Positions 12,360 to 52,744 of a stretch of DNA of 64,000 nt are shown here, piece after piece (the first letter of the stretch is position 1; the number at the start of each line of letters is the position of its first letter). Location: positions 52,108,121 to 52,172,120 of the forward strand of contig CM026390.1 in NCBI GenBank assembly GCA_014843695.1, in the 5' to 3' direction. The notes beneath the pieces were generated by a model. The model searched no databases, had not been told where the DNA came from, and was given only the letters and a program-made list of their open reading frames with translations. The position numbers and the translations under genes were made by a program. The stretch is from Archivesica marissinica. Taxonomy: Eukaryota > Mollusca > Bivalvia > Venerida > Vesicomyidae.

Positions 12360-12431
12360 CTCGACAATCTGAGTCTTCTGGAGGACCAGTCACTATAATT
12401 GATGGTGGCATGAACAAGGGTTCCACACAAT
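12360..12431 (-). CDS. Exon 5: short linker exon of the SH3 gene
   Basis: 72 bases, acceptor TTTTGTAG|AT and donor CGAG|GTACAT. It completes Asp176 and encodes residues 177-199: CVEPLFMPPSIIVTGPPEDS then DCR, ending in phase 1. The Pro- and acid-rich composition fits the preceding linker. The donor is weaker than the others, so the exon could extend further; the frame stays open beyond it but turns into hydrophobic, noncoding-looking sequence. The exon lies about 120 bases from the end of the 74-bp array. No exon 6 could be supported at lower coordinates, so the gene probably continues left of the window. Confidence 0.68.
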
Positions 12432-12529
12432 CTACAAAACATGTGGGTGGAGTTACACATAAATTACGCTCAAGTTTTTATTTTACTGAAACATAACAGG
12501 AATTACGCTACCATGCTATATTAATTCTT

Positions 12530-12777
12530 AACTTTATTTATATTACAACGATTGCGAAGCAAGTTTTAACAACTTATATTAATCACTCTCGTTGGCGCAA
12601 ATGAAGCGTATATATGTGGTCATTCGTGTGGGAGGAAACCGGAGTACCCTGAGAAAACGCATCTGTCTGATCTGGTGACCACCGTACCATCTCACATACT
12701 TCCCAGTTCGAGGATCGAACCCGGGTTGCATTGGTGAGAAGCGAGCTCGCTAACAACTGCGCTAATCGGACAGCCAA
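12530..12777 (-). mobile_element. SINE family 4 (GGTTTCCTCCCAC type) with family-1 tail
   Basis: On the minus strand it starts GGCTGTCCGATTAGCGCAGT, a tRNA-like A box, followed by a B-box-like GGGTTCGATCCTCG and the motif GGTACTCCGGTTTCCTCCCA. The last ~60 bases are the same as the SINE family 1 tail (GAGAGTGATTAATATAAGTT, CTTGCTTCGCAATCG). The GGTTTCCTCCCAC segment is familiar from invertebrate and fish SINEs; the superfamily cannot be assigned by eye. Confidence 0.8.
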
Positions 12778-13208
12778 ATGATATATTATTTAATGTAATG
12801 CTTTCAACAGGCCTCCTCAACTTGGACCAGCTCTGTATGGAACCAAACAAATATTAAGTAGAGAAACAACAAATTTACACTTGTTGAAACATATAGATGC
12901 AGTAAATGAAGACCATAACTTCATGTGGGATCTGCTTAAGTAATGGTTACTGTGGATTCGCAGCCCCAGGGGTCTGTTTTTCACCAGTTCAGTCTAGAGT
13001 ATGGGTAGGTTATTCTCCTCATCAGTCTCCAGTATAATTATGTGTTTCATCATTTAAGTCCAAAGTAAATTAAAAGATATTTGATAAATTCTTCTAGAAG
13101 TTTGTTTTGTAACTGACGACAGGCCGGAGTTCACATTTATTGTTTTATGTTATGTATACCAAATACAATACCAGCATGAAAATAGCAGCATAATTAAGGT
13201 AGTGGACC
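12778..13208. other. Unique intron 4 sequence
   Basis: AT-rich non-repetitive sequence inside intron 4 of the SH3 gene. I see no exon or RNA. Confidence 0.4.
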
Positions 13209-13210
13209 CG

Positions 13211-13285
13211 TAATGGTCAATATTTAAAACATCCACCTAATGGTCAATATTTAAAACATCCACGTAATGGTCAATATTTAAAACA
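13211..13285. repeat. 27-bp tandem repeat, 3 copies
   Basis: Three copies of TAATGGTCAATATTTAAAAC plus ATCCACC. Confidence 0.9.
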
Positions 13286-13408
13286 GCAACAAGTTATTTT
13301 TATTATCTGCATTCTTTCACTGAATCATATGCCAATTTCTAGAACATTCACTGTCCAATAAAACTTTATTGAGAGATTCCGGGACAGGAGAACGGTAGTA
13401 TGTTGTAG

Positions 13409-13575
13409 ATTGGGGGGGGAAGGATACAGTGTACAGGGTGCAGGAAACTGTATACAAGGGGATGGTAAATTGGGAGGTGTGAGGGAGGAGGTGGGAGAGG
13501 AGGGGTGGAAGGCGGGAGTAGAGGGGTGGGAAGTGGGAGGTAAAGGGGATGGAAATGGGAGATGGGACCCCCTTG
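13409..13575. repeat. G/A-rich low-complexity tract in intron 4
   Basis: About 165 bases that are very rich in G and A on the plus strand, with many GGG and GGGG runs (GGGGGGGGAAGG, GAGGGGTGGG). The pre-mRNA of the minus-strand gene would be C/U-rich here. The open frames on both strands reflect composition. Confidence 0.85.
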
Positions 13576-13710
13576 TCCCCCCCATTCAGAAATTCACTTT
13601 AGCTGAACAAAACCAAAAAAAGTAAACATATCATTATATAACCGATGATTTCAACGCTACTCATGAAGCTAGTGGTGTACATAGAAAAGGTATAGCAACC
13701 ACAACATGGA

Positions 13711-13990
13711 CATGCTGAAACTTAAACATGCATGCTGGGATACTACTGTGTTAATCTACAGTGAATCAGCACAATCTCACTTGTCCTTGACCTTACATCA
13801 TGACCTTGGGACTCACCTTGGTGATGATGGAGACATGCTGAAACTTAAACATGCATGCTGGGATACTACTGTGTTAATCTACAGTGAATCAGCACAATCT
13901 CACTTGTCCTTGACCTTACACCATGACCTTGAGACTCACCTTGGTGATGATGGACATGCTGGAACTTGGACATGCATGTTGGGGAGGGAG
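13711..13990. repeat. 123-bp tandem duplication overlapping the exon 4 donor
   Basis: Copies start at 13711, 13834 and (partial, diverged) 13955, with CATGCTGAAACTTAAACATG and GACTCACCTTGGTGATGATGG in each complete copy. The partial right-hand copy contains the real exon 4 end and donor; the other complement the same donor-like site inside the intron. Confidence 0.92.
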
Positions 13991-14158
13991 GAGGAGGAAA
14001 TGCCTCGTCATGACCAATACTGCTGAACGAGCAACGATTGGGCGAGAGAGACAGGTGTGAGCCATTGTACGTGAAGCTGTTACATCGTGGTGATAACCTG
14101 TCCTGGGTTAGTGGAGGCGTCGAGGAGGAGGAGCTGCTTCTGAAAGCGTTCTTTCTAC
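13940..14158 (-). CDS. Exon 4: Ser/Pro-rich linker after the SH3 domain
   Basis: 219 bases, acceptor TTTAGCAG|GT and donor CCAAG|GTGAGT. It completes Gly103 and encodes residues 104-175 plus one base. The sequence is low-complexity and polar: six Ser in a row, a TPPLTQDRLSPRCNSF stretch, an SLSPNRCSF stretch, a PPPPSP motif and a terminal HVHHHQ. Such segments in scaffolds usually offer phosphorylation and SH3/14-3-3 docking sites; that role is inferred. Phase 1 on both sides matches exons 3 and 5. The last ~50 bases and the donor belong to a 123-bp tandem duplication whose other copies lie just downstream in the intron. Reading through the donor meets a TAG at 13866. Confidence 0.85.
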
Positions 14159-14199
14159 CTGCTAAATATGTGTTACAAGAAACAAAATATAACAACAAA

Positions 14200-14465
14200 G
14201 AAACAACGTAAAACAGGATAATAAATCAAACTGACAAGAAATGAAGGAAAATTAAAATCTGACACAAACACCCAGTTTACACAACAGTTATTGACACATA
14301 ACCATTATGTAAACATGGCATAGCTGCATATGGTTCCTGTTCAAGCTGCAGTCCTTGATGTCATTGTCTTCAAGGAGTGACTTTTGTTTTTTCTGCATAA
14401 TTATAATGTGTAGTACTCTCTTGAATTTAACACCTCTATAGTGTGCTTAGATTATATTGCATATT
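14200..14465. other. Unique intron 3 sequence
   Basis: AT-rich, non-repetitive DNA just upstream of exon 4 in gene direction. No feature is seen. Confidence 0.4.
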
Positions 14466-14676
14466 TTAGTTTATACACATTTATTTTAGCTCGATTGCGA
14501 AACAAGTTCTTACAACTTATATTAATCACGTTCGAGACCTCATTCCTGATGGAATCCATCACAACGAGGGAGAGAGAAGAAGCAACATGGCATTTAAATT
14601 CCTTGCTTAAGGGCGCAATCGTAATGGCTCCAGCGGGGCTCGAACTCCGAGCCATTCGCACCTGAAGCGATCATTT
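14466..14676 (-). mobile_element. SINE family 1, 5'-truncated
   Basis: The tail and body are complete (TTAGCTCGATTGCGAAACAA; TTCCTTGCTTAAGGGCGCAA). The tRNA-like head stops after CACCTGAAGCGAT, so the A box is missing. This is the usual truncation for reverse-transcribed elements. Confidence 0.88.
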
Positions 14677-15377
14677 GTTCCAATAATTATAAGCACAGAC
14701 AATCTTAAGGCTAAGATTTTCTGAAAGGTTAAATAGCAGAACAGGAAGCATACAAAATGAGAAAAATAAATAATTACACTACTAGAACAGAGGAGAATTC
14801 CTGCTCAATTTCTCATTATTTCCAGAAAAGCTGTTATTATGTAATAGTACGTGTTACTAGTATTACGTAAAGAAATCCAAATTGTTATTGTTTTCCTTAA
14901 AAATATCTGTATTGAATAGGATATAGCGGATAGTTGTGTTCAATGGTGTAAGATAGAATTTCATTTCATTTAGTGATCACCAAAAATTGTTTTTCCACTC
15001 GGCCACTCGTGGAAATACATATTTCGGTAATCACAAAATGAAATCATAAACACAAATCTTCTTTTTCTTTTATGATTTCCAATGATTTTGGCAATATAAC
15101 ATTTGTTATCAAATTTAGTTCATTTTTATTTCCGCTATCGGGAGCGCCGTTTCACTACAATACACAACCGCTTATGTTAGTGTGCACGTCCGTAATGAGA
15201 AATAGTTACTGTATAATTTTCCAATTAGTTTCTGTTTGCTGTCAGAATTAAAAACTACATCCAACTGACTTCGGAGGAATTCGAAATTCAAGAAGTGACA
15301 ACAATGCCCAGATAGGATTTTATTTCACTCAGAAAACTCAATTATTCATTGGAATGCATAAAGGGAAAATCATATTT
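14677..15377. other. Unique intron 3 sequence with one inverted repeat
   Basis: About 700 bases of AT-rich DNA with no frame of note. The only structure is an imperfect inverted repeat at 14963-15049 with arms ATTTCATTTAGTGATCACC and GGTAATCACAAAATGAAAT; its loop carries a second small palindrome around CCACTCGGCCACTCGTGG. It may be a decayed MITE. Confidence 0.5.
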
Positions 15378-15751
15378 CATTCTACTGTATTGTGCATGGA
15401 TTACTGTTAGCACATTTTGTTAAACTTGTTGGTATGGAAATGGAGTTCTCACATTCCACTGTATTGTGCATGGATTACTGTTATCACGTTTGATTAAACT
15501 TGCTGGTATTGAAATGGAGATCTCACATTCCACTGTATTGTGCATGGATTACTGTTAGCACGTTTTATTAAACTTGCTGGTATTGAAATGGAGGTCTCAC
15601 ATTCCACTGTATTGTGCATGGAATACTGTTAGCACGTTTTATTAAACTTGCTGGTATTGAAACGGAGTTCTCACATTCCACTGTATTGTGCATGGAATAC
15701 TGTTAGCACGTTTTATTAAACTTGCTGGTATTGAAATGGAGATCTCACATT
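15378..15751. repeat. 74-bp satellite B (5 units)
   Basis: The unit contains CATTCCACTGTATTGTGCAT, GGATTACTGTTAGCACG and TTAAACTTGCTGGTATTGAA. It shares length but no sequence with the other 74-bp arrays. Confidence 0.93.
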
Positions 15752-16250
15752 ATACCTTTTTTGAACAGGAATATGACTAAGATTCACGAGACAACATAAA
15801 CAATACTGAAACTGAGCTTCTAAAACTATATGCACATTTCGACAAAGTGATATACAACATAACATGCGTGTATACTATCTACGGTATATTTTACATGCAT
15901 GGTTTCCTGGAAGTTTAGTTTGCTTAGAACTATATGAAACTACATGAAGTTGCCAAACAAGGCATATTTTGAATATCAAACATAATCATACAAGTGGACA
16001 GTCCAATAGACAACCATTTACCCCACCGCTTTAGTAAATTGGAACAAGATTACAGCCAGAGAGACAATCATCTTAATATAAAAAGGGAGATAATTCTGTA
16101 ATATTGAAATGCACAATTTTCATTATTCAATATTAAAAACTTTGTCAGCTTCTAAGCTTCATCTGAACAGATCTACACAATGCATGTTAACCATAATAGT
16201 GCTGAAACCATATAATATTATTTTTGCAAATGGGAAAAAGAGCCAACTGT
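15752..16250. other. Unique intron 3 sequence
   Basis: About 500 bases of AT-rich DNA between array B and a SINE. No exon, RNA or repeat could be supported. Confidence 0.4.
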
Positions 16251-16541
16251 GTGTGTGTTTTACGTTTATTTATCGTCGCTACCGGTTGCCCATATGAGCG
16301 ACGCCTCCTGAAGAGATTAGTCATTTTAGATTTTGGAGGATAGTGCAATGATACAGACAGAGACCCATTCCAGAGTCTCCTCTGGTTCTTTTACGTGCAC
16401 GGTGTAAAGCACCGACACGAGACCTCGGTTTAACGTCCCATCTGAAAGACTGTTAATTTTATTAGGGTCAGACGGGGGATCAAACCTGCGATCCCTGGAT
16501 TACCAGTCCAGCGTGTTACCACTGGACTACAGATCCGTCTG
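16251..16541 (-). mobile_element. SINE family 2 (tRNA-Thr-like head)
   Basis: On the minus strand it has the head GACGGATCTGTAGTCCAGTG, an anticodon-like loop CTGGTAA (GGT), then B box GGTTTGATCC. A central segment has GTTAAACCGAGGTCTCGTGT and CCGTGCACGTAAAAGAACC, and the tail has GCGACGATAAATAAACGTAA. The central segment resembles the conserved domain of a metazoan SINE superfamily known from molluscs, possibly MetaSINE; that is from memory and untested. Confidence 0.87.
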
Positions 16542-16544
16542 CTG

Positions 16545-16780
16545 GCACAGAATTAAGTTCTTATATAGTAAAGATGACCTTGACCTGGAAGTGAGATGGA
16601 TGAAACCTGCATCCTGCACCCTGTCTTGATTTTTATTTTGCCATGTCATTATAAAATCCCTGAGGTGGCTCATGAGTAATGGAGCGGAAACGAATGATAG
16701 CCATTTGAACATTTTCTGATCTTGACTTTGAACTAACATGTGGTTGACATTTGTGCAGAGTCATTCTAAAATTTAGTGTA
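16545..16780. repeat. Fragment of a GACCTTGACCT-type dispersed repeat
   Basis: It has AGATGACCTTGACCTGGAAG, TTATAAAATCCCTGAGG and GACATTTGTGCAGAGTCATT. The wording recurs at 30340-30560 (TTTGTGCAGAGTTATTTGAAAATCC), so this is a diverged dispersed repeat. The SINE at 16781-16996 interrupts it; CTAAAATT and CCCTGAGTCA reappear on the far side (17020-17065). Confidence 0.6.
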
Positions 16781-16996
16781 TACAAATTTAATGTAGCTTG
16801 ATTGCGAAACAAGTTCTTACAACTTATATTAATCACTCGAGGCCTCATTCCTGATGGAATCCATCGCCATGAGGGAGAGAGAAGAGGCATGTGGAATTTA
16901 AATGCCTTGCCTAAGGGCACAATCGTAACGGCTCCAGCGGGGCTCAAACTCGGGACCTGAAGCAAACACTCTACCACTGCGCTATCACGACTTCCA
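16781..16996 (-). mobile_element. SINE family 1, almost full length
   Basis: The tail is AATGTAGCTTGATTGCGAAA and the body has GCCTTGCCTAAGGGCACAAT. The head carries the complement of GGAAGTCGTGATAGCGCAGT. It is nested in the dispersed repeat above. Confidence 0.88.
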
Positions 16997-17220
16997 CAAC
17001 ACCTTGACATAGCAGTGAAATTCTAAAATTCCTCTGCCAGTTCAAGAGTTATGAAATCCCTGAGTCATTCATTCTAATCATGTTCCTGTAAATTGATATG
17101 TATTCTAAGCCCTATCCAATTTGTATAATAATCAGAAAATATGTTTAAAGTAAAAGTTATGAAGTGGATATAACCACAGGTTAAATGTGTGACCTTGACC
17201 TTAAAGCCTGACGTAATCAT

Positions 17221-17985
17221 GTCTGCATCCCCTGCATTCCACATCCCCTGCATTCCACATCCCCTGCATTCCACATCCCCTGTATTCTACATCCCCTGCA
17301 TTCTGCATCCCCTGCATTCTGCATCCCCTGCATTCTACATCCCCTGCATTCTACATCCCCTGCATTCTACATCCCCTGCATTTCTGCATCCCCTGCATTC
17401 TACATCCCCTGCATTCTACATCCCTGCATTCTGCATCCCGCATTCTGCATCCCCTGCATTCTACATCCCCTGCATTCTACATCCCTGCATTCTACATCCC
17501 CTGCATTCTGCATCCCCTGCATTCTACCCGCATTCTACATCCCCGCATTCTACATCCCCTGCATTCTACATCCCCTGCATTCTACATCCCCTGCATTCTA
17601 CATCCCCTGCATTCTACATCCCCTGCATTCTACATCCCCTAATTCTACATCCCATCCCCTGCATTCTACATCCCCTGCATTCTACATCCCCTGCATTCTA
17701 CATCCCCTGCATTCTACATCCCCTGCATTCTACATCTCCTGCATTCTACATCCCCTGCATTCTACATCCCCTGCATTCTACATCCCCTGCATTCTACATC
17801 TCCTGCATTCTACATCCCCTGCATTCTACATCCCCTGCATTCTACATCTCCTGCATTCTACATCCCCTGCATTCTGCATCCCCTGCATTCTACATCCCCT
17901 GCATTCTACATCCCCTGCATTCTACATCTCCTGCATTCTACATCTCCTGCATTCTACATCCCCTGCATTCTACATCTCCTCCCCT
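17221..17985. repeat. 17-bp minisatellite (about 45 units)
   Basis: The unit is CTGCATTCTACATCCCC, with TTCTGC, CTCC and short-unit variants. Since 17 is not a multiple of three and the unit has no plus-strand stop in any frame, a 294-codon reading frame results. It is not a gene. Confidence 0.96.
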
Positions 17986-18085
17986 ACGTGTCAGAGGTTA
18001 CATATTGTGCTACTTTATAATTATGTGCCACATAACACACAACACCAACCTGATACTTTTCAATACAAAATAACTGGTTCCTTAC

Positions 18086-18197
18086 CAGTGCTATCTATGA
18101 GCACCACATGGTCAGCTGGAAACCAGCCTGGTTTGGCCATACACCCTTCTTTCATCAGGGAACCCTTCCACATACCATCCTGGCGCTGTTCAATAAT
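18086..18197 (-). CDS. Exon 3: second half of the SH3 domain
   Basis: 112 bases, acceptor TGTTTTCAG|ATT and donor CTG|GTAAGG, encoding residues 66-102 plus one base of codon 103. It reads IIEQRQDGMWKG, then after a loop GWFPADHVVLI, which is the distal half of an SH3 fold (DGxWKG strand and GxFPxxxV strand). The position normally held by the ligand-binding Trp is Met74, and the usual Tyr after FPxN is His95, while Pro92 is kept. The loop between the strands carries about eight extra residues, as in Caskin-type SH3 domains. The acceptor region is duplicated 50 bases upstream. An overlapping plus-strand frame is a shadow. Confidence 0.9.
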
Positions 18198-18296
18198 CTG
18201 AAAACAGACAATGTAATTCAATTATTAATAATATAATTATCAACTATCTGAAAACAGAAAATGTAATTAAATTATTATTAATATAATTGTCCATTT
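18198..18296. repeat. 50-bp direct duplication at the exon 3 acceptor
   Basis: CTGAAAACAGACAATGTAAT at 18198 recurs as CTGAAAACAGAAAATGTAAT at 18248, followed by the same AT-rich stretch. Each copy, read on the minus strand, ends in TCTGTTTTCAG. The copy at 18198 is the acceptor that keeps the SH3 frame. Confidence 0.9.
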
Positions 18297-19327
18297 GTCC
18301 ATAGTGTGTTCGCTTTTGGCTTTAAACTTGCACAAGCAGATATGGTCATATACATACTTTACAGCATTTCAGCTCCACTGTATTCACAGGCATGCATCAG
18401 GGTAGAGCTAACGACCTCTTCAAGCAAGACCCCAGTAACTCAAACCCACAGTTGCATGAGGTCGTTATATGGAAGTACAGGAAGGCCCAGCTGCACAACG
18501 TCAGGGACATATTAAATAGTACACAGCAGGGTTTTTGTCATTAATCCCCAGTCCACAAAGCATTTGAAATTGGAGCTTGAAGTCTTTTAATGCAAGTGTA
18601 GAGTCTCCTGGAATATTCTCTATGCACATAAATACCTCCAGAATATCAACTGCATCTTTCTAGTCTCTGTATTACAACATAAACAGCACAATAATAAACA
18701 AGAGCTCCAATATGGCTCTAATATAATTTACCAAGCAGTTTCACAGAATGATGTAATTTGAAGAATTAAAAAAAAAAATGATGGTGATTAATTGATGATA
18801 AAAATGAAGATCAAAATTGAGAATGAGGTTTCAAACTATGCACTGGTTTGCCTGTGTATATTTAGATAGTTTGGCCAGGGTAGGCTATGAAACCAAAGTA
18901 CTACGTTACATAGATAAACCCCATCAGTTGCAGTGCTTTGATTACAATGCATTCATGTACAGTTTGATCCCTCACACTTGCACTTGTGGGTAGAATATAA
19001 CATTAACCTTTATCACGCTCTAGACGAAATGAGCAGATAATAAATGTGTAATATTTTTCTTATTTTTCCTAGATAGTAGGACTTCACATTTCATTCAAAT
19101 CATTCCCCCGTTGAGACAGACGGAACTGTCAAGCCCTACTTACGCGACACCTACATCATACTAGGAAGCTGAAACACGATACATTGACCGGCCATTGATC
19201 CACTCTGAATGACCAACTTCCCCCAACATTCAGCTTGAAACAACACACTCTAAAGTGGGGTTTATTACCCCACTCCCTGTATAAATAAATATACAGTCAA
19301 ACCTGTGTCAGTGGTCACCTCTTCCTG
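18297..19327. other. Unique intron 2 sequence
   Basis: About 1 kb without tandem repeats. Short frames on the plus strand have no recognisable domain. A short inverted match (CTAACGACCTC at 18409 and GAGGTCGTTAT at 18459) is present. Confidence 0.4.
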
Positions 19328-19577
19328 TGATTCAGGGATCGCTGGTTCGATCCCCGTCTGACCCTAATAAAATTAACAGTCTTTCAGGTGGGACGTTAAA
19401 CCGAGGTCTCGTATTGGTGCTTTACACCGTGCATGTAAAAGAACCAGAGGAGACTCTGGAATGGGTCTCTCTCTGTATCATTGCACTATCCTCCAAAAAT
19501 CTAAAATGACTAATCTCTTCAGGAGGCGTCGCTCATATGGGCAACCGGTAGCGACGATAAATAAACGTAAAACACAC
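19328..19577 (+). mobile_element. SINE family 2, 5'-truncated
   Basis: It starts inside the tRNA-like head just before the B box (CTGGTTCGATCCCCGTCTG) and then follows family 2 to the ACGATAAATAAACGTAAAAC tail. Confidence 0.88.
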
Positions 19578-19807
19578 ACGAAACTAAACAGAAACTTTGT
19601 ATTCCAAGATTCCAGAACCAGTTAGCGTCTGGCATTTGGAATACTATGAATATTCCACTTCATTCCTTAGACAAAGCTTTTTGTAACCATCTCTTTACCT
19701 TGTTATTCATCTGTCTCTATTTAGTAACCACTATTATGTTACCTAAATTCTGATCTAAAATAGTGTCTGCTTCATAATGACTGTCATTATAGATGAAGAA
19801 TGAGATA

Positions 19808-20049
19808 TTAACACATTCAACACCAAGTAACTGACATGGACTGGTCCATGATATTTTTAGACCAATAACGTAATAAGAAAATTACATTTGGACCAGTTCA
19901 TTTATCAAAATGGGTCATTTTGCCTAAAAATAGTAATATTACTGGCAAAAAGTGCAGATCCTGATGATACGGCTCGTCACGAGCCGGCTCATCTGGATCT
20001 ACACTTTTTTGTAAGCCTATTTAGAGGACTGTGGTGTTGAAAGTGTTAA
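19808..20049. mobile_element. TTAA MITE family 1 (piggyBac-like)
   Basis: The ends are TTAACACATTCAACACCA and TGGTGTTGAAAGTGTTAA, so TTAA lies at both borders with about 14-bp inverted termini. It has no coding capacity. The interior has a hairpin, AGTGCAGATCCTGATGA to CATCTGGATCTACACT. TTAA targets and termini beginning CCC are typical of the piggyBac superfamily (established); the assignment is by those marks only. Confidence 0.85.
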
Positions 20050-21794: not shown

Positions 21795-21805
21795 GCTTGT
21801 TTGTT

Positions 21806-21868: not shown

Positions 21869-21944
21869 AGGAATATACGGTATACATACCCTTACACCAG
21901 AGGAAACCTACTGAACTTTTACAAGCTCACATACAAATTTCTTG

Positions 21945-22234
21945 TGTGTTTTACGTTTATTTATCGTCGTTACCGGTTGCCCATATGAGCGACGCCTCTT
22001 GAAGAGATTAGTCATTTTAGAATTTTGGAGGATAGCATGATACACACAGAGACCCATTCCAGAGTCTCCTCTGGTTCTTTTACGTGCACGGTGTACAGCA
22101 CTGGCACAAGACCTTGGTTTAAAGTCCCATCTGAAAGACTGTTAATTTTATTAGGATCAGACGGGTGGGATCGAACCAGCGATCCATGGATTACCAGTTC
22201 AGTGTGTTACCACTGGACTACAGATCCGTCTGTA
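21945..22234 (-). mobile_element. SINE family 2, full length
   Basis: It runs from the tail TTTTACGTTTATTTATCGTC to the head complement ACTGGACTACAGATCCGTCT, with all internal landmarks of family 2. Confidence 0.88.
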
Positions 22235-22822: not shown

Positions 22823-22895
22823 GTATCCGTTCATATAGCACTGAAACTGAGTACAATCAAACAACAACCACATTAATAATTCTGATGGATTCTTT

Positions 22896-35845: not shown

Positions 35846-35924
35846 TTATAGATTTCACATTGCTATGCACCTGAAGTGAACACTCCACGACTACCATTCC
35901 AAAATTGATAGATTTCACATTCCT

Positions 35925-36221: not shown

Positions 36222-36316
36222 CTTAATGAGATCTCCATCTTTAAAGGTCAGTGAATTGGGGTCATATATGTTACAATGGTCTCTCACTGCTTTGGCTTGC
36301 ACACAAAAACTTGCTT
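36222..36316 (-). CDS. Exon 2: first half of the SH3 domain
   Basis: 95 bases, acceptor TTTCAG|AA and donor AAG|GTATGA. It completes codon 34 (Glu) and encodes residues 35-65. Residues 43-47 (AVRDH) stand where most SH3 domains have ALYDY. YDPNSLTFKDGDLIK follows, with the LxFxxGDxI signature of the RT and n-Src region. The exon ends in phase 0, exactly as exon 3 needs. A 30-bp minisatellite starts only 48 bases upstream of the acceptor, and an inverted SINE pair lies about 220 bases downstream in intron 2. Confidence 0.88.
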
Positions 36317-36364
36317 CTGAAAGGTCAAAAAATCAATAATGTAAACATTGATGTGTTTGTCTTA

Positions 36365-37128
36365 CAGCATCCTACAGTATCTCCATATTGTATACAGCAT
36401 CCTACAGTATCTCCATATTGTATATAGCATCCTACAGTATCTCCATATTGTATATAGCATCCTACAGTATCTCCATATTGTATATAGCATCCTACAGTAT
36501 CTCCATATTGTATATAGCATCCTACAGTATCTCCATATTGTATACAGCATCCTACCGTATCTCCATATTGTATATAGCATCCTACAGTATCTCCATATTG
36601 TACACAGCATCCTACAGTATCTCCATATTGTACAGAGCATCCTACAGTATCTCCATATTGTACACAGCATCCTACAGTATCTCCATATTGTACACAGCAT
36701 CCTACAGTATCTCCATATTGTACACAGCATCCTACAGTATCTCCATATTGTATACAGCATCCTACAGTATCTCCATATTGTACACAGCATCCTACAGTAT
36801 CTCCATATTGTACACAGCATCCTACAGTATCTCCATATTGTATACAGCATCCTACAGTATCTCCATATTGTATACAGCATGCTACAGTATCTCCATATTG
36901 TATACAGCATCCTACAGTATCTCCATATTGTATACAGCATCCTATAGTATCTCCATATTGTATACAGCATCCTACAGTATCTCCATATTGTATACAGCAT
37001 CCTGCAGTATCTCCATATTGTATATAGCATCCTACAGTATCTCCATATTGTATACAGCATCCTACAGTATCTCCATATTGTATACAGCATCCTACAGTAT
37101 CTCCATATTGTATACAGCATCCTACAGT
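36365..37128. repeat. 30-bp minisatellite (about 25 units)
   Basis: The unit is CCTACAGTATCTCCATATTG plus TATACAGCAT, varied at TATA, TACA and TATAT. It is a multiple of three, so four long frames stay open on both strands with 10-residue repeats. It ends 48 bases from the exon 2 acceptor, within intron 1. Confidence 0.97.
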
Positions 37129-37135
37129 ATATTGT

Positions 37136-39545
37136 GCCCATCGCAACTCTCAAATAACACCTGTGCCCATCACAATACCAAAATAACACCTGTGCTCATC
37201 GCAACTTCCAAATAACACCTGTGCCCATCGCAACTTCCAAATAACACCTGCGCCCATCACAACTCCCAAATAACACCTGCACCCATCACAACTCCCAAAT
37301 AACACTTGCGCCCATCACAACTCCCAAATAACACCTGCGCCCATCACAACTCCCAAATAACACTTGCGCCCATCACAACTCTCAAATAACACCTGTGCCC
37401 ACCACAACTCTCAAATAACACATGTGCCCACCACAACTCCCAAATAACACCTGCGCCCACAACAACTCCCAAATAACACCTGCGCCCATCACAACTCCCA
37501 AATAACACCTGTGCCCACCCAACTCTCAAACAACACATGTGCCCACCACAACTCCCAAATAACACCTGCGCCCACCACAACTCCCAAATAACACATGCGC
37601 CCACAACAACTCCCAAATAACACCTGCGCCCATCACAACTCCCAAATAACACATGTGCCCACCACAACTCCCAAATAACCTGCCATCCAACTCCCAAATA
37701 ACACCTGTGCCCACACAACTCAAATAACATGGCCCACCACAACTCCCAAATAACACCTGCGCCCATCACAACTCCCAAATAACACCTGCGCCCATCACAA
37801 CTCCCAAATAACACCTGCGCCCATCACAACTCCCAAATAACACCTGCGCCCATCACAACTCCCAAATAACACCTGTGCCCATCACAACTCCCAAATAACA
37901 CCTGCGCCCATCACAACTCCCAAATAACACCTGTGCCCATCACAACTCCCAAATAACACCTGAGCCCATCACAACTCCCAAATAACACCTGCGCCCATCA
38001 CAACTCCCAAATAACACCTGTGCCCATCACAACTCCCAAAATAACACCTGTGCCCATCACAACTCCCAAAATAACACCTGTGCCCATCACAACAACAAAA
38101 TAACACCTGTACCCATCACAACTCCCAAATAACACCTGTGCCCATCACAACTCCCAAATAACACCTGCGCCCATCACAACTCCCAAATAACACCTGCGCC
38201 CATCACAACTCCCAAATAACACCTGTGCCCACCACAACTCCCAAATAACACCTGTGCCCATCACAACTCCCAAATAACACCTGCGCCCATCACAACTCCC
38301 AAATAACACCTGTGCCCATCACAACTCCCAAATAACACCTGCGCCCATCACAACTCCCAAATAACACCTGCGCCCATCACAACTCCCAAATAACACCTGT
38401 ACCATCCAACTCCCAAATAACACCTGTGCCCATCACAACTCCCAAATAACACCTGCGCCCACCACAACTCCCAAATAACACATGCGCCCACAACAACTCC
38501 CAAATAACACCTGCGCCCATCACAACTCCCAAATAACACATGTGCCCACAACAACTCCCAAATAACACCTGCGCCCATCACAACTCCCAAATAACACCTG
38601 TGCCCACCACAACTCTCAAATAACACATGTGCCCACCACAACTCCCAAATAACACCTGCGCCCATCACAACTCCCAAATAACACCTGTGCCCATCACAAC
38701 ACCAACATAACACCTGTGCCCACACAACCAAATAACACCTGCGCCCATCACAACACCAAAATAACACCTGTGCCCATCACAACAACAAAATAACACCTGC
38801 GCCCATCACAACACCAACATAACACCTGTGCCCACCACAACTCCCAAATAACACCTGTGCCCATCACAACACCAACATAACACCTGTGCCCACCACAACT
38901 CCCAAATAACACCTGCGCCCATCACAACTCCCAAATAACACCTGTGCCCATCACAACTCCCAAATAACACCTGCGCCCATCACAACTCCCAAATAACACC
39001 TGCGCCCATCACAACTCCCAAATAACACCTGTGCCCATCACAACTCCCAAATAACACCTGCGCCCATCACAACTCCCAAATAACACCTGCGCCCATCACA
39101 ACTCCCAAATAACACCTGTGCCCATCACAACTCCCAAATAACACCTGAGCCCATCACAACTCCCAAATAACACCTGCACCCATCACAACTCCCAAATAAC
39201 ACATGTGCCCATCACAACTCCCAAATAATACCTGTGCCCATCACAACTCCCAAAATAACACCTGTGCCCATCACAACAACAAAATAACACCTGTATCCAT
39301 CACAACTCCCAAATAACACCTGTGCCCATCACAACTCCCAAATAACACCTGTGCCCATCACAACTCCCAAATAACACCTGCACCCATCACAACTCCCAAA
39401 TAACACCTGCGCCCATCACAACTCCCAAATAACACCTGCACCCATCACAACTCCCAAATAACACCTGTACCATCCCAACTCCCAAATAACACCTGTGCCC
39501 ATCACAACTTCAGAATAACACCTGGGCCCATCACAACTCATAAAT
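37136..39545. repeat. 29-bp minisatellite (about 82 units)
   Basis: The unit is CCCATCACAACTCCCAAATA plus ACACCTGTG, with GTG, GCG and GAG endings and CATCAC or CACCAC starts. Most units keep a CACCTG E-box-like hexamer. Confidence 0.97.
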
Positions 39546-39887
39546 AATTGTGTCATTTCACAGCCTGCCATTGTACACATTTTTACAATATAAACTTACA
39601 GTATTCCTGACAGACATTACAGTAAATCAACAATACATTAATCATGTTAATGTCTAACACAGAACTGTGCCTCGTGGCCAAGGACTCATGCCCCTGCACC
39701 GAATGTGGCATACCACATGGGTAATTTGCTAAATTTCTGGAATTCACTTCACACAGATTTTTAGTGGGATCGATACAGAGCAATGGAGGTTCCAACTGTC
39801 ACACCCAGTTCTAAAATATGTAGAGTGAAACATCTTAATTGATTATCTTACTATGACCGTCATCTCCATGTCATAATCACCTACCTG
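39546..39887. other. Unique intron 1 sequence
   Basis: About 340 bases between arrays. No exon or element is recognised. Confidence 0.4.
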
Positions 39888-43338: not shown

Positions 43339-43342
43339 TAGC

Positions 43343-43950: not shown

Positions 43951-43957
43951 CATTTTT

Positions 43958-44216: not shown

Positions 44217-44229
44217 ATCACCAACTTAG

Positions 44230-44375
44230 TTTAATCATATTTTATTGCATTCTTTATATTCTATGTACAATACAACTCAAATGTACAAACATGATACGGA
44301 TGTTTAATCATATTTTATTGCTTTCTTTATATTCTATGTACAATACAACTCAAATGTACAAACATGTTATGGATG
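44230..44375. repeat. 73-bp tandem duplication
   Basis: Two copies of TTTAATCATATTTTATTGCA, CTATGTACAATACAACTCAA and ATGTACAAACATG. Confidence 0.9.
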
Positions 44376-45185
44376 AATTAAATAAGATATATGGTACAAA
44401 CATTATCAGTATGTATATATATATGGAGAAGCAATAGGGTTGGGCCACAAGTTTTAACAACATTAGTTTCGGCCAGCCCCAACTACTGAAACAACAACTT
44501 ATTTATACATAAATAGCCTAGTAATTATTAAATATCGCAATCATTTCCAAGCAAATATTTACAAGTTTCAGTGATTACTGTACAGTAATTGGTATTGATG
44601 TACAGTTATTGTAGCTGTGTACGGCTTTTATCATTGCTATTGTCATTGTGCTAGATTTAAAATAATAACTGAGTAATAGCAGAGGACTATGATTCATCTA
44701 ACATTGCATGCTAATGTCAATTCATTGTATGCAGCAGCTGGTGCTTCCGTTCTACCATTGAATGCTTCTGAACTCACTGTATGCAGTCTCATGCAGACTG
44801 TGTTCTCTATTCAATAATGCAAAGTATAATTCTTTGTTTATTTGTTTGCGCAAATCTTTGTTTATTTAGTTTGGGTTGGTCAATCTCAGCATTGTTTATA
44901 GTAAACATGATGATCATTTTCAGGTCATCTGGTACTAACAACTGATTAATTATGGAAATATATCTCACATACAAAACTATGTCATTCACAAAGGCTCATA
45001 GCTCAATCATAGTTCACCAGGGCAATTACAACTTGCTGATGATATGCATAACTGTAACTACTGGCATAACCCAGTGTTGAACAGAAACAGCTTTTATAGT
45101 AAAACTACTGGCTGCCAAAGGCCCAGGAGTGAGATTCATACAGGTATGAATGTGCTGTGCAGATTTATCAAACAAAATTATAATT
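44376..45185. other. Unique intron 1 sequence
   Basis: About 800 bases, AT-rich, with no supportable exon or element. Confidence 0.4.
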
Positions 45186-45198
45186 ACTGGCTATGTGT

Positions 45199-45467
45199 TA
45201 TGTTATATGTTATATTTTGGGTTTTACGCCTGCATCAGCACCATTTTGGGCTATATCGCCGGCGGGCAGTTTACCTAACAACACCTTTCCTGGGCAGGCT
45301 CCAGCGGTTAACCAGTACTTGGGTGCATCAACCTCCGTAAGAAACTGCCAACTTTTTCATATAAATGAGACACGGCCTGAGTGGGGCTCGAACCCGTGAC
45401 CATCAGTGATGATAGGTTACAGTGGTATACAAGTCAGCGATCGTAACCACTCGTCCACGGAGGCGGG
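45199..45467 (-). mobile_element. SINE family 3, intact with 13-bp target duplication
   Basis: 269 bases bounded by ACTGGCTATGTGT at 45186-45198 and 45468-45480. It matches the satellite C copies in length and landmarks, which independently confirms their borders. Confidence 0.93.
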
Positions 45468-45659
45468 ACTGGCTATGTGTGAATTGTGTTTGTGGAGTGC
45501 ATGTAGAATCCAAATATATAGGTGTTCAGCATGTGCTGCTGGCTCTAGCCATGTGGACAATACATTCCCACTTAAGGACTTAATTCAACATATGTGTTCC
45601 AACACTAAATCTGAGACAATCAGTCCAGACTTGAGCGACACTTCTGGTAACAAAATAGT

Positions 45660-45718
45660 ATGAATAGGGTACTATATAGTATGAATAGGGTACTATATAG
45701 TATGAATAGGGTACTATA
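45660..45718. repeat. 20-bp tandem repeat, 3 copies
   Basis: Three copies of TATGAATAGGGTACTATATAG. Confidence 0.9.
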
Positions 45719-45888
45719 CCATACTATAGAAATATGCAATGAAGAAGTGCCATCCATATCTGTGCAGCAACACTGTACTGGGAGTGCATATTGATGTCAA
45801 GGGAAAGATGTATATAGGATGTGTAGTTAATAGATCACTTTTACACATATTATAGAGACTAAAGTTGTTCCAGAAATGAAAAAGCTTT

Positions 45889-46313
45889 TACTGTATTTGT
45901 CGCTGCCGACTTGATAAATGTCACTGAAGCCATATGTTATTTCTTTGAAGAGTGGTTCTAATACAAGTTACTGATAAACTTCTTAACCCATTCAACACCA
46001 AGTAACTGACATGGACTGGTCCATGATATATTTAGACCAATAAATTAATAACAAAATTACATTTGGATCAGTTCATTTATCAAAATGGGTAATTTTTTTT
46101 CTAAAAATAGTTATATTACTTGAAAAAAGTGCAGATCCTGATGAGATGGCTTGTCACGAGCCGGCTCATCTGGATCTACACTTTTTTGTAAGCCAATTTA
46201 GAGGTCTGTGGTGTTGAAAGGGTTAATAGTTTCCTATGTAAGGCTGCAGTCTCACCCTATACCATTATAATTTGTTTGTTAGATAATAGAGATAGCTCCT
46301 TGCATTTCTCTCT
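45889..46313. mobile_element. Composite L flank - MITE 1 - R flank
   Basis: The MITE (45983-46226) has ends TTAACCCATTCAACACCA and TGGTGTTGAAAGGGTTAA. Its flanks of 94 and 87 bases also occur at 28975-29154, so the MITE sits at a fixed site inside an older repeat that was copied with it. Confidence 0.85.
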
Positions 46314-46406
46314 GTCAACTTTTTTAACTGACAGCATCAAAGCTACGCAGCTCATCTGTATCATATTCTAAAAATACCATACAAACCAACACCTTATAGT
46401 AGGGAG

Positions 46407-46646
46407 TTAACCCTTTCCTTCATAGAGATTTAGGTTAATATACTATTATATCTCCATACAAACGACAGCCATTTAGCTATCATGCAGTGGATAAGTAGTC
46501 GCCATATCTACCCCACCTCCATAGATATTACTGGGACTACATGAGATTCTGGCCTTAATTATGAACATTGGTTTGGCTACTACAATGTCAATGTATGTGG
46601 TATTGGTAATGGCTTCAAGAGGTGCTTCCATGGGGGAAAGGGTTAA
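46407..46646. mobile_element. TTAA MITE family 4
   Basis: Ends TTAACCCTTTCCTTCATAGA and its imperfect partner CCATGGGGGAAAGGGTTAA, 240 bases including TTAA at both sides. The interior lacks the shared AGATCC hairpin. Confidence 0.65.
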
Positions 46647-47201
46647 GTCATGAATCTGTACCTAAAATGACACCTCACAGCTAACACCAGACCCCTCAAC
46701 AAGAGTGATTTAGTCGTTGCTGCTTTTATAGTTTCATCCAAATAGGTTATATGGAGACGGGAACCCGAGGCTCTTCTGAAGTGTCCATTCTGATCAATAC
46801 AAGTTTGTATTATTACAAATTGCCAGGGTTTGGAGGCATCGCTCGCTCGGTGAAATTGCATGAAAGTTTGAATTAGTTCTAAGATGGTCATTAAGCAACA
46901 ACAATTTGAGCCCGGTCCAAGACAATTGTTTTAAATCAATATCGAGATACCATATCGCAATGACCGATTACACGCTATCCCCATTCATCATATAACTACG
47001 GCACCAATATTCAGTAACCAATGGATCGTATAATAACTCATGCTTACTCTATCTCTGACATTTTGTTCATCGTTTGCCAAATAAGGTCATAAACAATTGC
47101 AGTATTTCCATATAACAGTTACACCGAATGTACTCTTGAACCTGTATTTGGTACACACACACTGAGTGAACTTAATGTAACGATGATAGATACACACACA
47201 A
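46647..47201. other. Unique intron 1 sequence with one unassigned frame
   Basis: An 82-codon minus frame (46643-46891) contains a polar stretch (CIDQNGHFRRASGSRLHITY). It overlaps the MITE end, shows no known motif, and does not splice into the SH3 frame by any site I can see, so it is not called. Confidence 0.35.
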
Positions 47202-47261
47202 CTCTGTCTGTCTGTCTGCCTGCCTGCCTGCCTTGTCTTGTCTTGTCTTGTCTTGTCTTGT

Positions 47262-47349
<88 letters not shown>

Positions 47350-47373
47350 ATGTCTGTCTGTCTGTCTGTCTGT
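47202..47373. repeat. CTGT/CTGC/CTTGT microsatellite
   Basis: Blocks of TCTG, TGCC, five TTGTC pentamers, TGCC again and TCTG again follow one another. It is purely simple sequence; frames on both strands are by-products. Confidence 0.97.
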
Positions 47374-47426
47374 GGACAGGACAACTCAAATAGTTGTTAA
47401 TTGACTTTGATGAAATGTTGAGGATA

Positions 47427-50400
47427 TACATACATCTCTCCAAGTGCTATATCTATACATCTATACATCTCTCCAAGTGCTATATCTATACATCTATACA
47501 TCTCTCCAAGTGCTATATCTATACATCTATACATCTCTCCAAGTGCTATATCTATACATCTATACATCTCTCCAAGTGCTATATCTATGCATCTCTCCGA
47601 GTGCTATATCTATACATCTATACATCTCTCCAAGTGCTATATCTATACATCTATACATCTCTCCAAGTGCTATATCTATACATCTCTCCAAGTGCTATAT
47701 CTATACATCTATACATCTCTCCGAGTGCTATATCTATACATCTATACATCTCTCCAAGTGCTATATCTATACATCTATACATCTCTCCAAGTGCTATATC
47801 TATACATCTATACATCTCTCCAAGTGCTATATCTATACATCTATGCATCTCTCCAAGTGCTATATCTATACATCTATGCATCTCTCCAAGTGCTATATCT
47901 ATACATCTATACATCTCTCCGAGTGCTATATCTATACATCTATACATCTCTCCAAGTGCTATATCTATACATCTATACATCTCTCCAAGTGCTATATCTA
48001 TACATCTATGCATCTCTCCAAGTGCTATATCTATACATCTATACATCTCTCCAAGTGCTATATCTATACATCTATGCATCTCTCCAAGTGCTATATCTAT
48101 GCATCTCTCCGAGTGCTATATCTATACATCTATACATCTCTCCAAGTGCTATATCTATGCATCTCTCCGAGTGCTATATCTATACATCTCTCCGAGTGCT
48201 ATATCTATACATCTATACATCTCTCCAAGTGCTATATCTATACATCTCTCCAAGTGCTATATCTATACATCTATACATCTCTCCAAGTGCTATATCTATA
48301 CATCTATACATCTCTCCAAGTGCTATATCTATACATCTATGCATCTCTCCGAGTGCTATATCTATACATCTCTCCAAGTGCTATATCTATACATCTATAC
48401 ATCTCTCCAAGTGCTATATCTATACATCTATGCATCTCTCCGAGTGCTATATCTATACATCTCTCCAAGTGCTATATCTATACATCTATGCATCTCTCCG
48501 AGTGCTATATCTATACATCTCTCCAAGTGCTATATCTATACATCTATACATCTCTCCAAGTGCTATATCTATACATCTATGCATCTCTCCGAGTGCTATA
48601 TCTATGCATCTCTCCAAGTGCTATATCTATACATCTATACATCTCTCCAAGTGCTATATCTATACATCTATACATCTCTCCAAGTGCTATATCTATACAT
48701 CTATACATCTCTCCAAGTGCTATATCTATACATCTATGCATCTCTCCAAGTGCTATATCTATACATCTATGCATCTCTCCAAGTGCTATATCTATACATC
48801 TATACATCTCTCCAAGTGCTATATCTATGCATCTCTCCGAGTGCTATATCTATACATCTCTCCGAGTGCTATATCTATACATCTATACATCTCTCCAAGT
48901 GCTATATCTATACATCTCTCCAAGTGCTATATCTATACATCTATACATCTCTCCAAGTGCTATATCTATACACCTCTCCAAGTGCTATATCTATACATCT
49001 ATGCATCTCTCCGAGTGCTATATCTATACATCTCTCCAAGTGCTATATCTATACATCTATACATCTCTCCAAGTGCTATATCTATACATCTATGCATATC
49101 TCCAAGTGCTATATCTATACATCTATGCATCTCTCTGTGTGCTATATCTATACATCTATGCATCTCTCCGAGTGCTATATCTATACATCTATACATCTCT
49201 CCGAGTGCTATATCTATACATCTATACATCTCTCCGAGTGCTATATCTATACATCTATGCATCTCTCCAAGTGCTATATCTATGCATCTCTCCGAGTGCT
49301 ACATCTATGCATCTCTCCGAGTGCTATATCTATACATCTCTCCAAGTGCTATATCTATACATCTCTCCAAGTGCTATATCTATACATCTCTCCAAGTGCT
49401 ATATCTATACATCTCTCCGAGTGCTATATCTATACATCTATGCATCTCTCCGAGTGCTATATCTATACATCTCTCCAAGTGCTATATCTATACATCTCTC
49501 CAAGTGCTATATCTATACATCTATGCATCTCTCCGAGTGCTATATCTATACATCTCTCCAAGTGCTATATCTATACATCTCTCCAAGTGCTATATCTATA
49601 CATCTCTCCAAGTGCTATATCTATACATCTCTCCAAGTGCTATATCTATACATCTCTCCGAGTGCTATATCTATACATCTCTCCAAGTGCTATATCTATA
49701 CATCTCTCCAAGTGCTATATCTATACATCTCTCCAAGTGCTATATCTATACATCTATACATCTATGCATCTCTCAGAGTGCTATATCTATACATCTATGC
49801 ATCTCTCAGAGTGCTATATCTATACATCTATGCATCTCTCCGAGTGCTATATCTATACATCTATACATCTCTCAGAGTGCTATATCTATACATCTATACA
49901 TCTCTCTGAGTGCTATATATATACATCTATACATCTCTCAGAGTGCTATATCTATACATCTATACATCTCTCCGAGTGCTATATCTATACATCTATACAT
50001 CTCTCCGAGTGCTATATCTATACATCTATGCATCTCTCTGAGTGCTATATATATACATCTATACATCTCTCAGAGTGCTATATCTATACATCTATGCATC
50101 TCTCAGAGTGCTATATCTATACATCTATGCATCTCTCCGAGTGCTATATCTATACATCTATACATCTCTCAGAGTGCTATATCTATACATCTATACATCT
50201 CTCTGAGTGCTATATATATACATCTATACATCTCTCAGAGTGCTATATCTATACATCTATACATCTCTCCGAGTGCTATATCTATACATCTCTCCGAGTG
50301 CTATATCTATACATCTATGCATCTCTCAGAGTGCTATATCTATACATCTATACATCTCTCTGAGTGCTATATCTATACATCTATACATCTCTCAGAGTGC

Positions 50401-51670
50401 TATATCTATACATCTATACATCTCTCTGAGTGCTATATATATACATCTATACATCTCTCAGAATGCTATATCTATACATCTATACATCTCTCCGAGTGCT
50501 ATATCTATACATCTATACATCTCTCTGAGTGCTATATCTATACATCTATACATCTCTCTGAGTGCTATATCTATACATCTATACATCTCTCAGAGTGCTA
50601 TATCTATACATCTATACATCTCTCTGAGTGCTATATATATACATCTATACATCTCTCAGAGTGCTATATCTATACATCTATACATCTCTCCGAGTGCTAT
50701 ATCTATACATCTATACATCTCTCCGAGTGCTATATCTATACATCTATGCATCTCTCAGAGTGCTATATCTATACATCTATGCATCTCTCAGAGTGCTATA
50801 TCTATACATCTATACATCTCTCCGAGTGCTATATCTATACATCTATACATCTCTCCGAGTGCTATATCTATACATCTATACATCTCTCTGAGTGCTATAT
50901 CTATACATCTATACATCTCTCCGAGTGCTATATCTATACATCTCTCCAAGTGCTATATCTATACATCTCTCCGAGTGCTATATCTATACATCTCTCCAAG
51001 TGCTATATCTATACATCTCTCCAAGTGCTATATCTATACATCTCTCCAAGTGCTATATCTATACATCTCTCCAAGTGCTATATCTATACATCTCTCCAAG
51101 TGCTATATCTATACATCTCTCCGAGTGCTATATCTATACATCTCTCCGAGTGCTATATCTATACATCTCTCAGAGTGCTATATCTATACATCTATACATC
51201 TCTCCGAGTGCTATATCTATACATCTATACATCTCTCTGAGTGCTATATCTATACATCTATACATCTCTCTGAGTGCTATATCTATACATCTATACATCT
51301 CTCTGAGTGCTATATCTATACATCTATGCATCTCTCCGAGTGCTATATCTATACATCTATGCATCTCTCAGAGTGCTATATCTATACATCTATGCATCTC
51401 TCCGAGTGCTATATCTATACATCTATGCATCTCTCAGAGTGCTATATCTATACATCTATGCATCTCTCTGTGTGCTATATCTATACATCTATACATCTCT
51501 CCGAGTGCTATATCTATACATCTATACATCTCTCCGAGTGCTATATCTATACATCTATACATCTCTCTGAGTGCTATATATATACATCTATGCATCTCTC
51601 AGAGTGCTATATCTATACATCTATGCATCTCTTTGAGTGCTATATCTATACCTCTATGCATCTCTCCGAG
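47427..51670. repeat. 25/33-bp minisatellite (about 140 units)
   Basis: The 25-base core CATCTCTCCAAGTGCTATAT plus CTATA occurs with or without an extra CATCTATA octamer. Left of about 49750 most units read CCAAG or CCGAG; right of it CAGAG, CTGAG and CCGAG dominate, with a return of CCAAG at 50950-51110. No plus-strand frame contains a stop, giving frames up to 1217 codons; I do not regard them as genes. Confidence 0.97.
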
Positions 51671-52644
51671 ATAACGTGCAAGTATTTGATTATCTGGGAC
51701 TATTTACTACAGCGTACGGATGTACCCAACTGATTTCCTTGAGATGTAATAAGGCTCAAAGTATACAGGAAAACAGAAAAGTGTTTTATTCAAATTGATG
51801 GTTATTGTGGTAATGGGATCAAAATCGCAAATATACTGAACGTTCACTTTGAGAACTTTTCCATCTTCGTTACTCGTTTTGGAATATTGCTATTATTAAT
51901 TAGCAAAATTGCAAAACTTGTTTCATAAATATGCTATGAAATCACCACTAATGTAGATCCTATATATATAATGAGGATGGAACAGTTCTCAAGGCGAACT
52001 TTCAGTATATTTGTTGGGACACAGCTCATTTTAAAAGAAATACGGCTTGGAAGTTCTCACGTTCTCACTTTGAAGGTCCCGACATGTTTGTGCTTCTTCT
52101 ATCTACATGACTACAAATATGCAAACCAAAGTTCGATTTCAGTTGGATGAAAACTGTATGATGTATGCAACAAAAACAGAGTTTAGACAATTATTAATAT
52201 GTCTGAAAATTGACGTTATTAAAATTTTGCTAGCCCAATTCAAGCGTGAGCTCGTCAGTATTGATGCTTAGCTCAGCCAATTGGATTTATGGGATTTACG
52301 CGGCCTGTATGAAAATGATGAAATCGGATTGGTTGTTTGAGCTCGGCCTTTATGAAATTGCCTGACGAAATTCTTTTTGCAGACACCATCTTTGAAACAT
52401 ACTCGTTCATGCTTGCCAAATTCTTAAAAAAAATAGGTCTTAAATCGATCTTTATTTGTTCACAGCTCTTTCAAATTCATTAAGTTTTAGTTGTGACAAG
52501 TCTAACAATTACAAGTCCCACAGCTCAACACATCTCATGTCAATATGTAGTGCAAACTGTTGGTTGAAGAAATTTGGTAGACACTAAGCAGAAAGTAGTT
52601 CTACATTTACAAAATGAATAGCAGATAGTGGTGAACGTTCTTAC
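51671..52644. other. Intron 1 start, unique, with a long inverted repeat
   Basis: About 970 bases directly downstream of exon 1 in gene direction. Arms at 51829-51865 and 51976-52012 pair over 37 bases with few mismatches (ATATACTGAACGTTCACTTT against GGCGAACTTTCAGTATAT). No coding feature is seen. Confidence 0.55.
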
Positions 52645-52744
52645 CTGTAAATATCTCTATAGGGCTGGTCTGTTGACTACCAGGCGTAGTAGCACCGTTA
52701 GAACAAAGATTCCCATCCACACAGTTTGGAATACAAAACTTCAT
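52645..52744 (-). CDS. Exon 1: start codon and N-terminal leader of the SH3 gene
   Basis: This exon supplies residues 1-33 plus the first base of codon 34. The frame starts MKFCIPNCVDGN and ends PIEIFT; four Cys lie in the first 14 residues and Thr/Ser/Gln are common after that. An in-frame TAA lies 18 bases upstream of the ATG and position -3 is A, so this ATG is the likely start. The donor reads ACAG|GTAAGA, close to consensus. No convincing pyrimidine tract plus AG lies just upstream, which argues for a first exon rather than an internal one. No signal peptide or membrane segment is visible. The exon is too short to score alone; the support is its exact phase match to exon 2, about 16 kb away. 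Confidence 0.75.

What the first reader, a model, noticed from the sequence alone, without database searches (positions are those of the whole stretch)
12360..52744. A split SH3 gene hidden in a minisatellite field
Five exons of 72-219 bases, separated by up to 18 kb, join with matching phases at four junctions, keep canonical GT/AG borders and rebuild one SH3 domain across two exons. No single long frame reveals it. Roughly half or more of the first 40 kb of its introns is tandem repeat DNA, so assemblies and gene predictors could easily miss it.
Basis: partly seen in the sequence, partly recalled or inferred. Interest (0 to 1): 0.78.

Follow-up and report, generated by a model that had tools for sequence, protein, structure and literature searches.

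The report
Clam caskin gene with alternative start
The five scattered exons are real and form the middle of a very large clam gene for caskin, a known scaffold protein; the first of them looks like an alternative start that would make a version without its ankyrin repeats.

Summary
All five exons lie at the stated coordinates on the - strand with matching phases and GT/AG borders, and exons 2-3 rebuild one SH3 domain. They align collinearly with caskin-2-like of the clam Mercenaria mercenaria (81% over 197 columns).

The reading changes. This is not a free-standing 199-residue SH3 gene but the middle of a caskin gene of about 356 kb. In the window's own 1.54-Gb genome, eight upstream exons carry ankyrin repeats; downstream exons carry the tandem SAM domains and C-terminus.

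Exon 1 (MKFCIPNC...) sits inside the 85.9-kb intron between the ankyrin and SH3 exons. It and the last ankyrin exon both end in phase 1 and can each join exon 2. Mercenaria's model starts at the same Met (31 of 34 residues identical). Best reading: an alternative first exon giving an ANK-less caskin, in the manner of SHANK2A. No RNA evidence was available; a cassette exon is the main rival.

The minisatellite field is larger than reported: 64% of 252 kb, with 64 arrays of at least 500 bp in 264 kb whose units are nearly all unrelated. Known family, interesting variant.

The parts
52645..52744 (-). Exon 1: proposed alternative first exon, MKFCIPNCVDGNLCSNGATTPGSQQTSPIEIFT, ends in phase 1
   Evidence: one match in the genome at E<=10
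36222..36316 (-). Exon 2: first half of the SH3 domain; also the best acceptor for the last ANK exon at C5:52230313
18086..18197 (-). Exon 3: second half of the SH3 domain
   Evidence: same upstream border in P0004
13940..14158 (-). Exon 4: Ser/Pro-rich linker after SH3
   Evidence: the same exon in unspliced ORFs P0001-P0003
12360..12431 (-). Exon 5: linker; the least certain of the five
13706..13983 (-). 123-bp tandem repeat, 2.3 copies, holding the last 44 nt of exon 4 and its donor; the second copy has the same AAG|GTGAGT after base 13817
56359..63650 (.). Window part of a 34-bp array that runs on to C5:52196616 (32,138 bp, about 920 copies), 3.6 kb upstream of exon 1
10835..12241 (.). 74-bp minisatellite, 19 copies, starting 119 bp after exon 5
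   Evidence: 19 genome matches, all in this array
36363..39547 (.). Two adjoining minisatellites (30 and 29 bp) ending 47 bp before exon 2
47430..51670 (.). 33-bp minisatellite, about 138 copies, in intron 1, 975 bp from exon 1

Best explanation
The window holds five exons of the caskin gene of a bivalve related to Mercenaria. Caskin is a scaffold protein with ankyrin repeats, an atypical SH3 domain, two SAM domains, a proline-rich tail and a conserved C-terminus. Shown from sequence: the gene runs on the - strand of C5 from about 52360421 to 52004335; eight ANK-side exons lie upstream of the window; the last of them and exon 1 both end in phase 1 and can both join exon 2; exon 1 is conserved at protein level in Mercenaria, whose model starts with it. 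Inferred: exon 1 is an alternative first exon driven by a promoter inside the 85.9-kb intron, giving an ANK-less caskin that keeps SH3, SAMs and tail and begins with a 33-residue peptide containing three cysteines. Such a form would keep SAM-based assembly and tail contacts and lose the ANK contacts, as SHANK2A lacks the ANK of SHANK2E. The SH3 has the caskin-type altered groove. The minisatellites are local intronic expansions that are spliced out.
For: Caskin identity: PDB best matches Caskin-1 and Caskin-2; Mercenaria caskin-2-like 4.3e-103, 81% over 197 columns. Gene: 12 matches of P0005, all on C5 - strand, among 37 scored candidates; eight ANK exons with canonical borders and matching phases; Pfam ANK and SH3_2 in the joined product and two SAM stretches in P0005; SAM and tail exons in the genome at 82-97% identity where fully aligned. 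Exon 1 as a start: the Mercenaria model begins at the same Met, 31 of 34 residues identical; in-frame TGA 8 codons upstream and weak pyrimidine tracts (29%, 53%) at the phase-fitting AGs; absent from the ANK-containing P0006, P0008, P0009. Parallel: SHANK2A (PMC9579136, passages).
Against: No RNA evidence. Two AGs (-5 and -23 from the ATG) would let exon 1 act as a phase-keeping cassette exon, and the -23 AG has the same pyrimidine share (53%) as the accepted exon 4 acceptor. Exon 1 was found in only one other species, in a model flagged LOW QUALITY. The CpG profile shows no promoter-like peak at exon 1.
Confidence: 0.72

Rival explanations
1. Exon 1 is an internal cassette exon spliced between the last ANK exon and the SH3 exon, adding about 35-41 residues to full-length caskin; there is no internal promoter.
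For: With an acceptor at -5 or -23 the exon keeps phase on both sides and stays open; it lies between the ANK and SH3 exons.
Against: Weak pyrimidine tracts, in-frame stop just upstream; the Mercenaria model starts at this Met and has no ANK; no ANK-containing relative seen here (P0006, P0008, P0009; also the partial P0007) carries the insert.
Confidence: 0.18
2. Exon 1 is not used: Mercenaria's start is a gene-model artefact and only the ANK-containing caskin is made.
For: The Mercenaria entry is flagged LOW QUALITY PROTEIN and found once.
Against: An unused intron stretch would hardly keep 31 of 34 residues, frame and phase-1 donor between two genera-level relatives while exon 4 keeps 73%.
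Confidence: 0.07
3. The locus is a decaying or non-functional caskin copy swamped by repeats.
For: Extreme repeat load and a duplicated donor at exon 4.
Against: The 13 exons modelled here are open with canonical borders; exon 2 equals Mercenaria over its 31 whole codons; no second caskin was reported in the genome search.
Confidence: 0.03

Closest known systems
Caskin-1 / Caskin-2 of vertebrates and caskin-2-like of bivalves
   Same: ANK repeats, single SH3 with altered groove, tandem SAM, proline-rich tail, C-terminal stretch
   Different: An exon between ANK and SH3 exons that is proposed to start an ANK-less form; among the relatives retrieved only Mercenaria shows it. SH3 position of human R319 is M or V in the bivalves
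SHANK2A and other SHANK isoforms from intragenic promoters
   Same: An ANK-SH3-SAM-type scaffold losing its ANK module through an internal start (PMC9579136, passages)
   Different: Works like it, not a member: SHANKs carry a PDZ domain, caskins tandem SAMs. One passage seen calls the shared N-terminal domains analogous but not evolutionarily conserved (PMC6856520). The clam promoter is inferred only
Satellite-like arrays carried by Helentrons in Crassostrea gigas (PMC7492417, search listing and start of abstract only)
   Same: Many tandem arrays dispersed in a bivalve genome
   Different: Here the array units are nearly all different from each other, and the local dispersed elements are not enriched at array ends

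Membership tests
Caskin | N-terminal ankyrin repeats | tested here: met
   Eight upstream exons, joined product hits Ank_2 at 2.2e-41; Ank_4 gives 6 stretches. The exact number six of repeats was not counted
Caskin | Single SH3 after the ANK repeats | tested here: met
   SH3_2 at 288-344 of the joined product; best PDB matches are Caskin SH3 domains
Caskin | SH3 groove without the usual aromatics | tested here: met
   Positions of human K290 and R319 are R/K and M/V in 6 of 6 bivalve sequences; the third position (human L341) reads H by eye, not aligned to the human sequence
Caskin | Tandem SAM domains | tested here: met
   P0005 has two SAM_1 stretches and its SAM residues match genome exons at L006, L005/L008 and L001
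Caskin | Proline-rich region and conserved C-terminus | tested here: met
   P0005 467-1184 at 82% in L001; 1201-1236 at 81% on C5. Compared with bivalve, not human, sequence
Caskin | CASK-interaction domain (Caskin1 only) | not tested
   Absent from Caskin2 according to PMC5020537 (passages), so not needed for the family
ANK-less isoform from an internal promoter (SHANK2A type) | Alternative first exon inside the gene, downstream of the ANK exons | tested here: inconclusive
   Position, phase, upstream stop and Mercenaria model fit; cassette use is not excluded
ANK-less isoform from an internal promoter (SHANK2A type) | Transcription start at that exon | not testable with these tools
   No RNA data; CpG profile uninformative

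The most novel reading that the evidence does not exclude
The transcribed caskin locus of this clam is a hotspot for independent local births of minisatellites: 64 arrays of at least 500 bp with nearly all units unrelated, the load (64%) dropping to 10-16% at the gene's 5' end. The clam lineage also has a conserved internal promoter 3.6 kb after a 32-kb array, making an ANK-less caskin with a cysteine-containing, possibly lipid-modified N-terminus.
Probability: 0.2. Interest if true: 0.6.

Novelty: new variant of a known kind. Interest (0 to 1): 0.36.

Why it matters
A conserved ANK-less caskin start would show that a second ANK-SH3-SAM scaffold family, besides SHANK, sheds its ankyrin module by an internal start. 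The SH3 comparison suggests that the altered proline-binding groove is old, being present in bivalve and human caskins, which bears on whether that SH3 is vestigial or has another ligand. The locus is also a clear example of introns filled by many unrelated minisatellites, useful for asking where and why such arrays are born, including one that has duplicated a splice donor.

Tried and rejected
Strand bias of the minisatellites: in the window they looked G-rich on the sense strand. Over the 89 arrays of 200 bp or more in the 252-kb gene part it is weak (54 of 89, sign test P=0.056, Wilcoxon P=0.016), so I make no claim.

Arrays carried by dispersed elements: 12 of 98 locally repeated intervals lie within 60 bp of a large array end, against 17.8 +/- 3.9 for random placement, so no enrichment. 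A CpG test for a promoter at exon 1 was uninformative. No ANK match was seen inside the window, so the upstream 200 kb was fetched (it holds 1,000 N). Two clam genome papers (passages only) gave no tandem-repeat percentage to compare with. Searches for an ANK-less caskin in print (listings) showed none in the library held, which lacks most subscription journals; the Drosophila caskin paper is not held.

Background for repeat content is thin: 14 loci away from the gene, two of them overlapping, each around an ankyrin-like match and so rich in long frames, hold 0-50%, mean about 11% (my mean). Whether this gene is special in its genome is open.

Full report
WHAT IS THERE. The five exons were read at the stated coordinates. 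Their lengths are 100, 95, 112, 219 and 72 nt on the - strand. Each is followed by GT, exons 2-5 are preceded by AG, and the phases join to 199 residues without a stop. Pfam SH3_2 covers residues 42-98 at E=1.6e-9, so the domain is rebuilt across exons 2 and 3.

FAMILY. The best-matching solved structures by sequence are the SH3 domains of human Caskin-1 (7aty, 4.7e-10) and Caskin-2 (2ke9, 3.9e-8). A search for full-length relatives found four proteins at E<=0.001 among 518 candidates, all bivalve, led by Mercenaria mercenaria caskin-2-like at 4.3e-103. A third search gave five at E<=0.01 among 19 candidates, the query itself included, and added Dreissena polymorpha. The joined product is 81% identical to the Mercenaria protein over 197 columns. 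The four hits of the first search (among 21 candidates) look like unspliced ORFs: P0001-P0003 carry exon 4 and P0004 carries exon 3, their similarity beginning at or close to the borders seen here.

CHANCE. tblastn of the Mercenaria protein hits exons 1-4 in order on one strand at E=5.6e-14, 2.0e-15, 1.9e-17 and 2.4e-24. Against the reversed window it gave nothing at E<=10; three of the four other caskins gave weak reversed hits, the best at E=2.5. Exon 5 is the weak one: E=0.16 with the whole query; 0.003 with a 56-residue piece, against 0.010 for a wrong-strand hit and 0.014 in the reversed window. Its order, its splice borders and the next genomic match beginning at residue 193 carry it.

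THE WHOLE GENE. The own genome is held: 1.54 Gb, the window being C5:52108121-52172120. The Mercenaria protein gives 12 matches among 37 scored candidates, all on the - strand of C5 between 52004335 and 52160864. The ANK part was sought in 200 kb fetched upstream. Eight exons were found, and the best-scoring joins have canonical borders and matching phases: 52360421-52360322, 52348018-52347967, 52346267-52346170, 52321381-52321236, 52294029-52293934, 52289658-52289531, 52266653-52266545 and 52230421-52230313. The last ends AAG|GTAAGG in phase 1, and its best join is exon 2 of the window, giving ...KEIKQLLKEASFCVQ.... Pfam finds ankyrin repeats and SH3_2 in the product. Exons for the tandem SAM domains, the proline-rich part and the C-terminus follow downstream. 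The gene therefore spans about 356 kb and the window holds its middle. The downstream joins were not modelled.

EXON 1. Exon 1 sits inside the 85.9-kb intron between the last ANK exon and exon 2, 16.3 kb before exon 2. It is absent from the ANK-containing caskins of Mactra, Mya and Dreissena and from the partial one of Potamilus. The Mercenaria model begins with it, 31 of 34 residues identical by my count. By the same count exon 3 has 33 of 37, and exon 4 has 73% over 74 columns. In frame, a TGA stands 8 codons before the ATG. The phase-fitting AGs at -5 and -23 have pyrimidine shares of 29% and 53%, against 53-76% for exons 2-5. The peptide has one match in the genome at E<=10. I infer an alternative first exon and an ANK-less caskin. 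A cassette exon is not excluded, since either AG would keep phase and the -23 AG is no poorer in pyrimidines than the exon 4 acceptor. No expression evidence was available.

HOW IT WOULD WORK (inferred). The internal start would remove the ankyrin module and put a 33-residue peptide with three cysteines in front of SH3; the SAM domains, proline-rich part and C-terminus would stay. The documented parallel is SHANK2A, which lacks ANK and comes from an intragenic promoter (PMC9579136, passages). Lipid modification of the N-terminal cysteines is a guess from recalled examples such as PSD-95 and GAP-43; nothing here tests it.

THE SH3. Human Caskin1 has K290, R319 and L341 where Src has groove aromatics (PMC7830187, abstract and passages); K290 and R319 are also reported for Caskin2 (PMC5020537, passages). 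At the first two positions the six bivalve sequences compared have R or K, and M or V (6 of 6). The third reads H in the motif FPADHV, placed by eye. The altered groove is thus shared by bivalve and human caskins; a common origin is likely but was not tested on a tree.

REPEATS. Tandem repeats make up 62% of the window and 64% of C5:52108121-52360421; the load is 15.5% in the first intron and 10% in the 11.7 kb beyond the start codon. In the 264 kb examined there are 64 arrays of at least 500 bp with periods 15-74; only one pair of units, neighbouring 61-bp arrays that may be one split array, resembles each other at E<=0.01. The 74-bp unit has 19 reported matches in the genome, all in its own array, though that search skips very common words. 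One further unit was not scored and two queries did not complete. Five larger dispersed families (31, 19, 17, 10 and 8 local intervals) do not cluster at array ends. This fits many local births rather than one spreading family. Fourteen loci elsewhere average about 11% but are exon-biased, and only the 5' edge of the field was seen, so I cannot say that this gene is special in its genome.

A SPLICE SITE INSIDE A REPEAT. A 123-bp tandem repeat (13706-13983) includes the last 44 nt of exon 4 and its donor. The second copy has the same AAG|GTGAGT 123 nt downstream. Using it would add 24 residues and then a TAG. Whether it is used is unknown.

VERDICT. Observation confirmed; the interpretation moves from a small hidden SH3 gene to the middle of a giant caskin gene. 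The family is known. The proposed ANK-less start and the repeat field are the parts worth following.

Noticed in passing
window 13706-13983: A tandem duplication has copied the end of exon 4 with its splice donor; the copy's donor is identical (AAG|GTGAGT) and its use would lead to a stop after 24 residues.
   Followed up: partly
window 55197-55268 (+) and 16464-16536 (-): tRNA-like stretches (Rfam tRNA) lie inside 290-bp elements repeated at 16252-16541, 19327-19583, 21943-22232 and 55191-55479: probably tRNA-derived SINEs rather than tRNA genes.
   Followed up: partly
C5:52108121-52372120: Five dispersed short-element families with 31, 19, 17, 10 and 8 local intervals, median 205-257 bp, not enriched at array ends.
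   Followed up: partly
C5:52164479-52196616 (window 56359 onwards): A 32-kb array of a 34-bp unit, about 920 copies, in the intron between the ANK and SH3 exons.
   Followed up: partly
C5:52281675-52284966: A 3.3-kb array (TRF periods 7 and 11) whose G and C are almost wholly on separate strands (sense GC skew 0.99).
   Followed up: no
window 12590-12770: By eye, intron 4 holds a stretch resembling a tRNA-derived SINE (box A- and box B-like sequences; motifs recalled, not found by a call).
   Followed up: no
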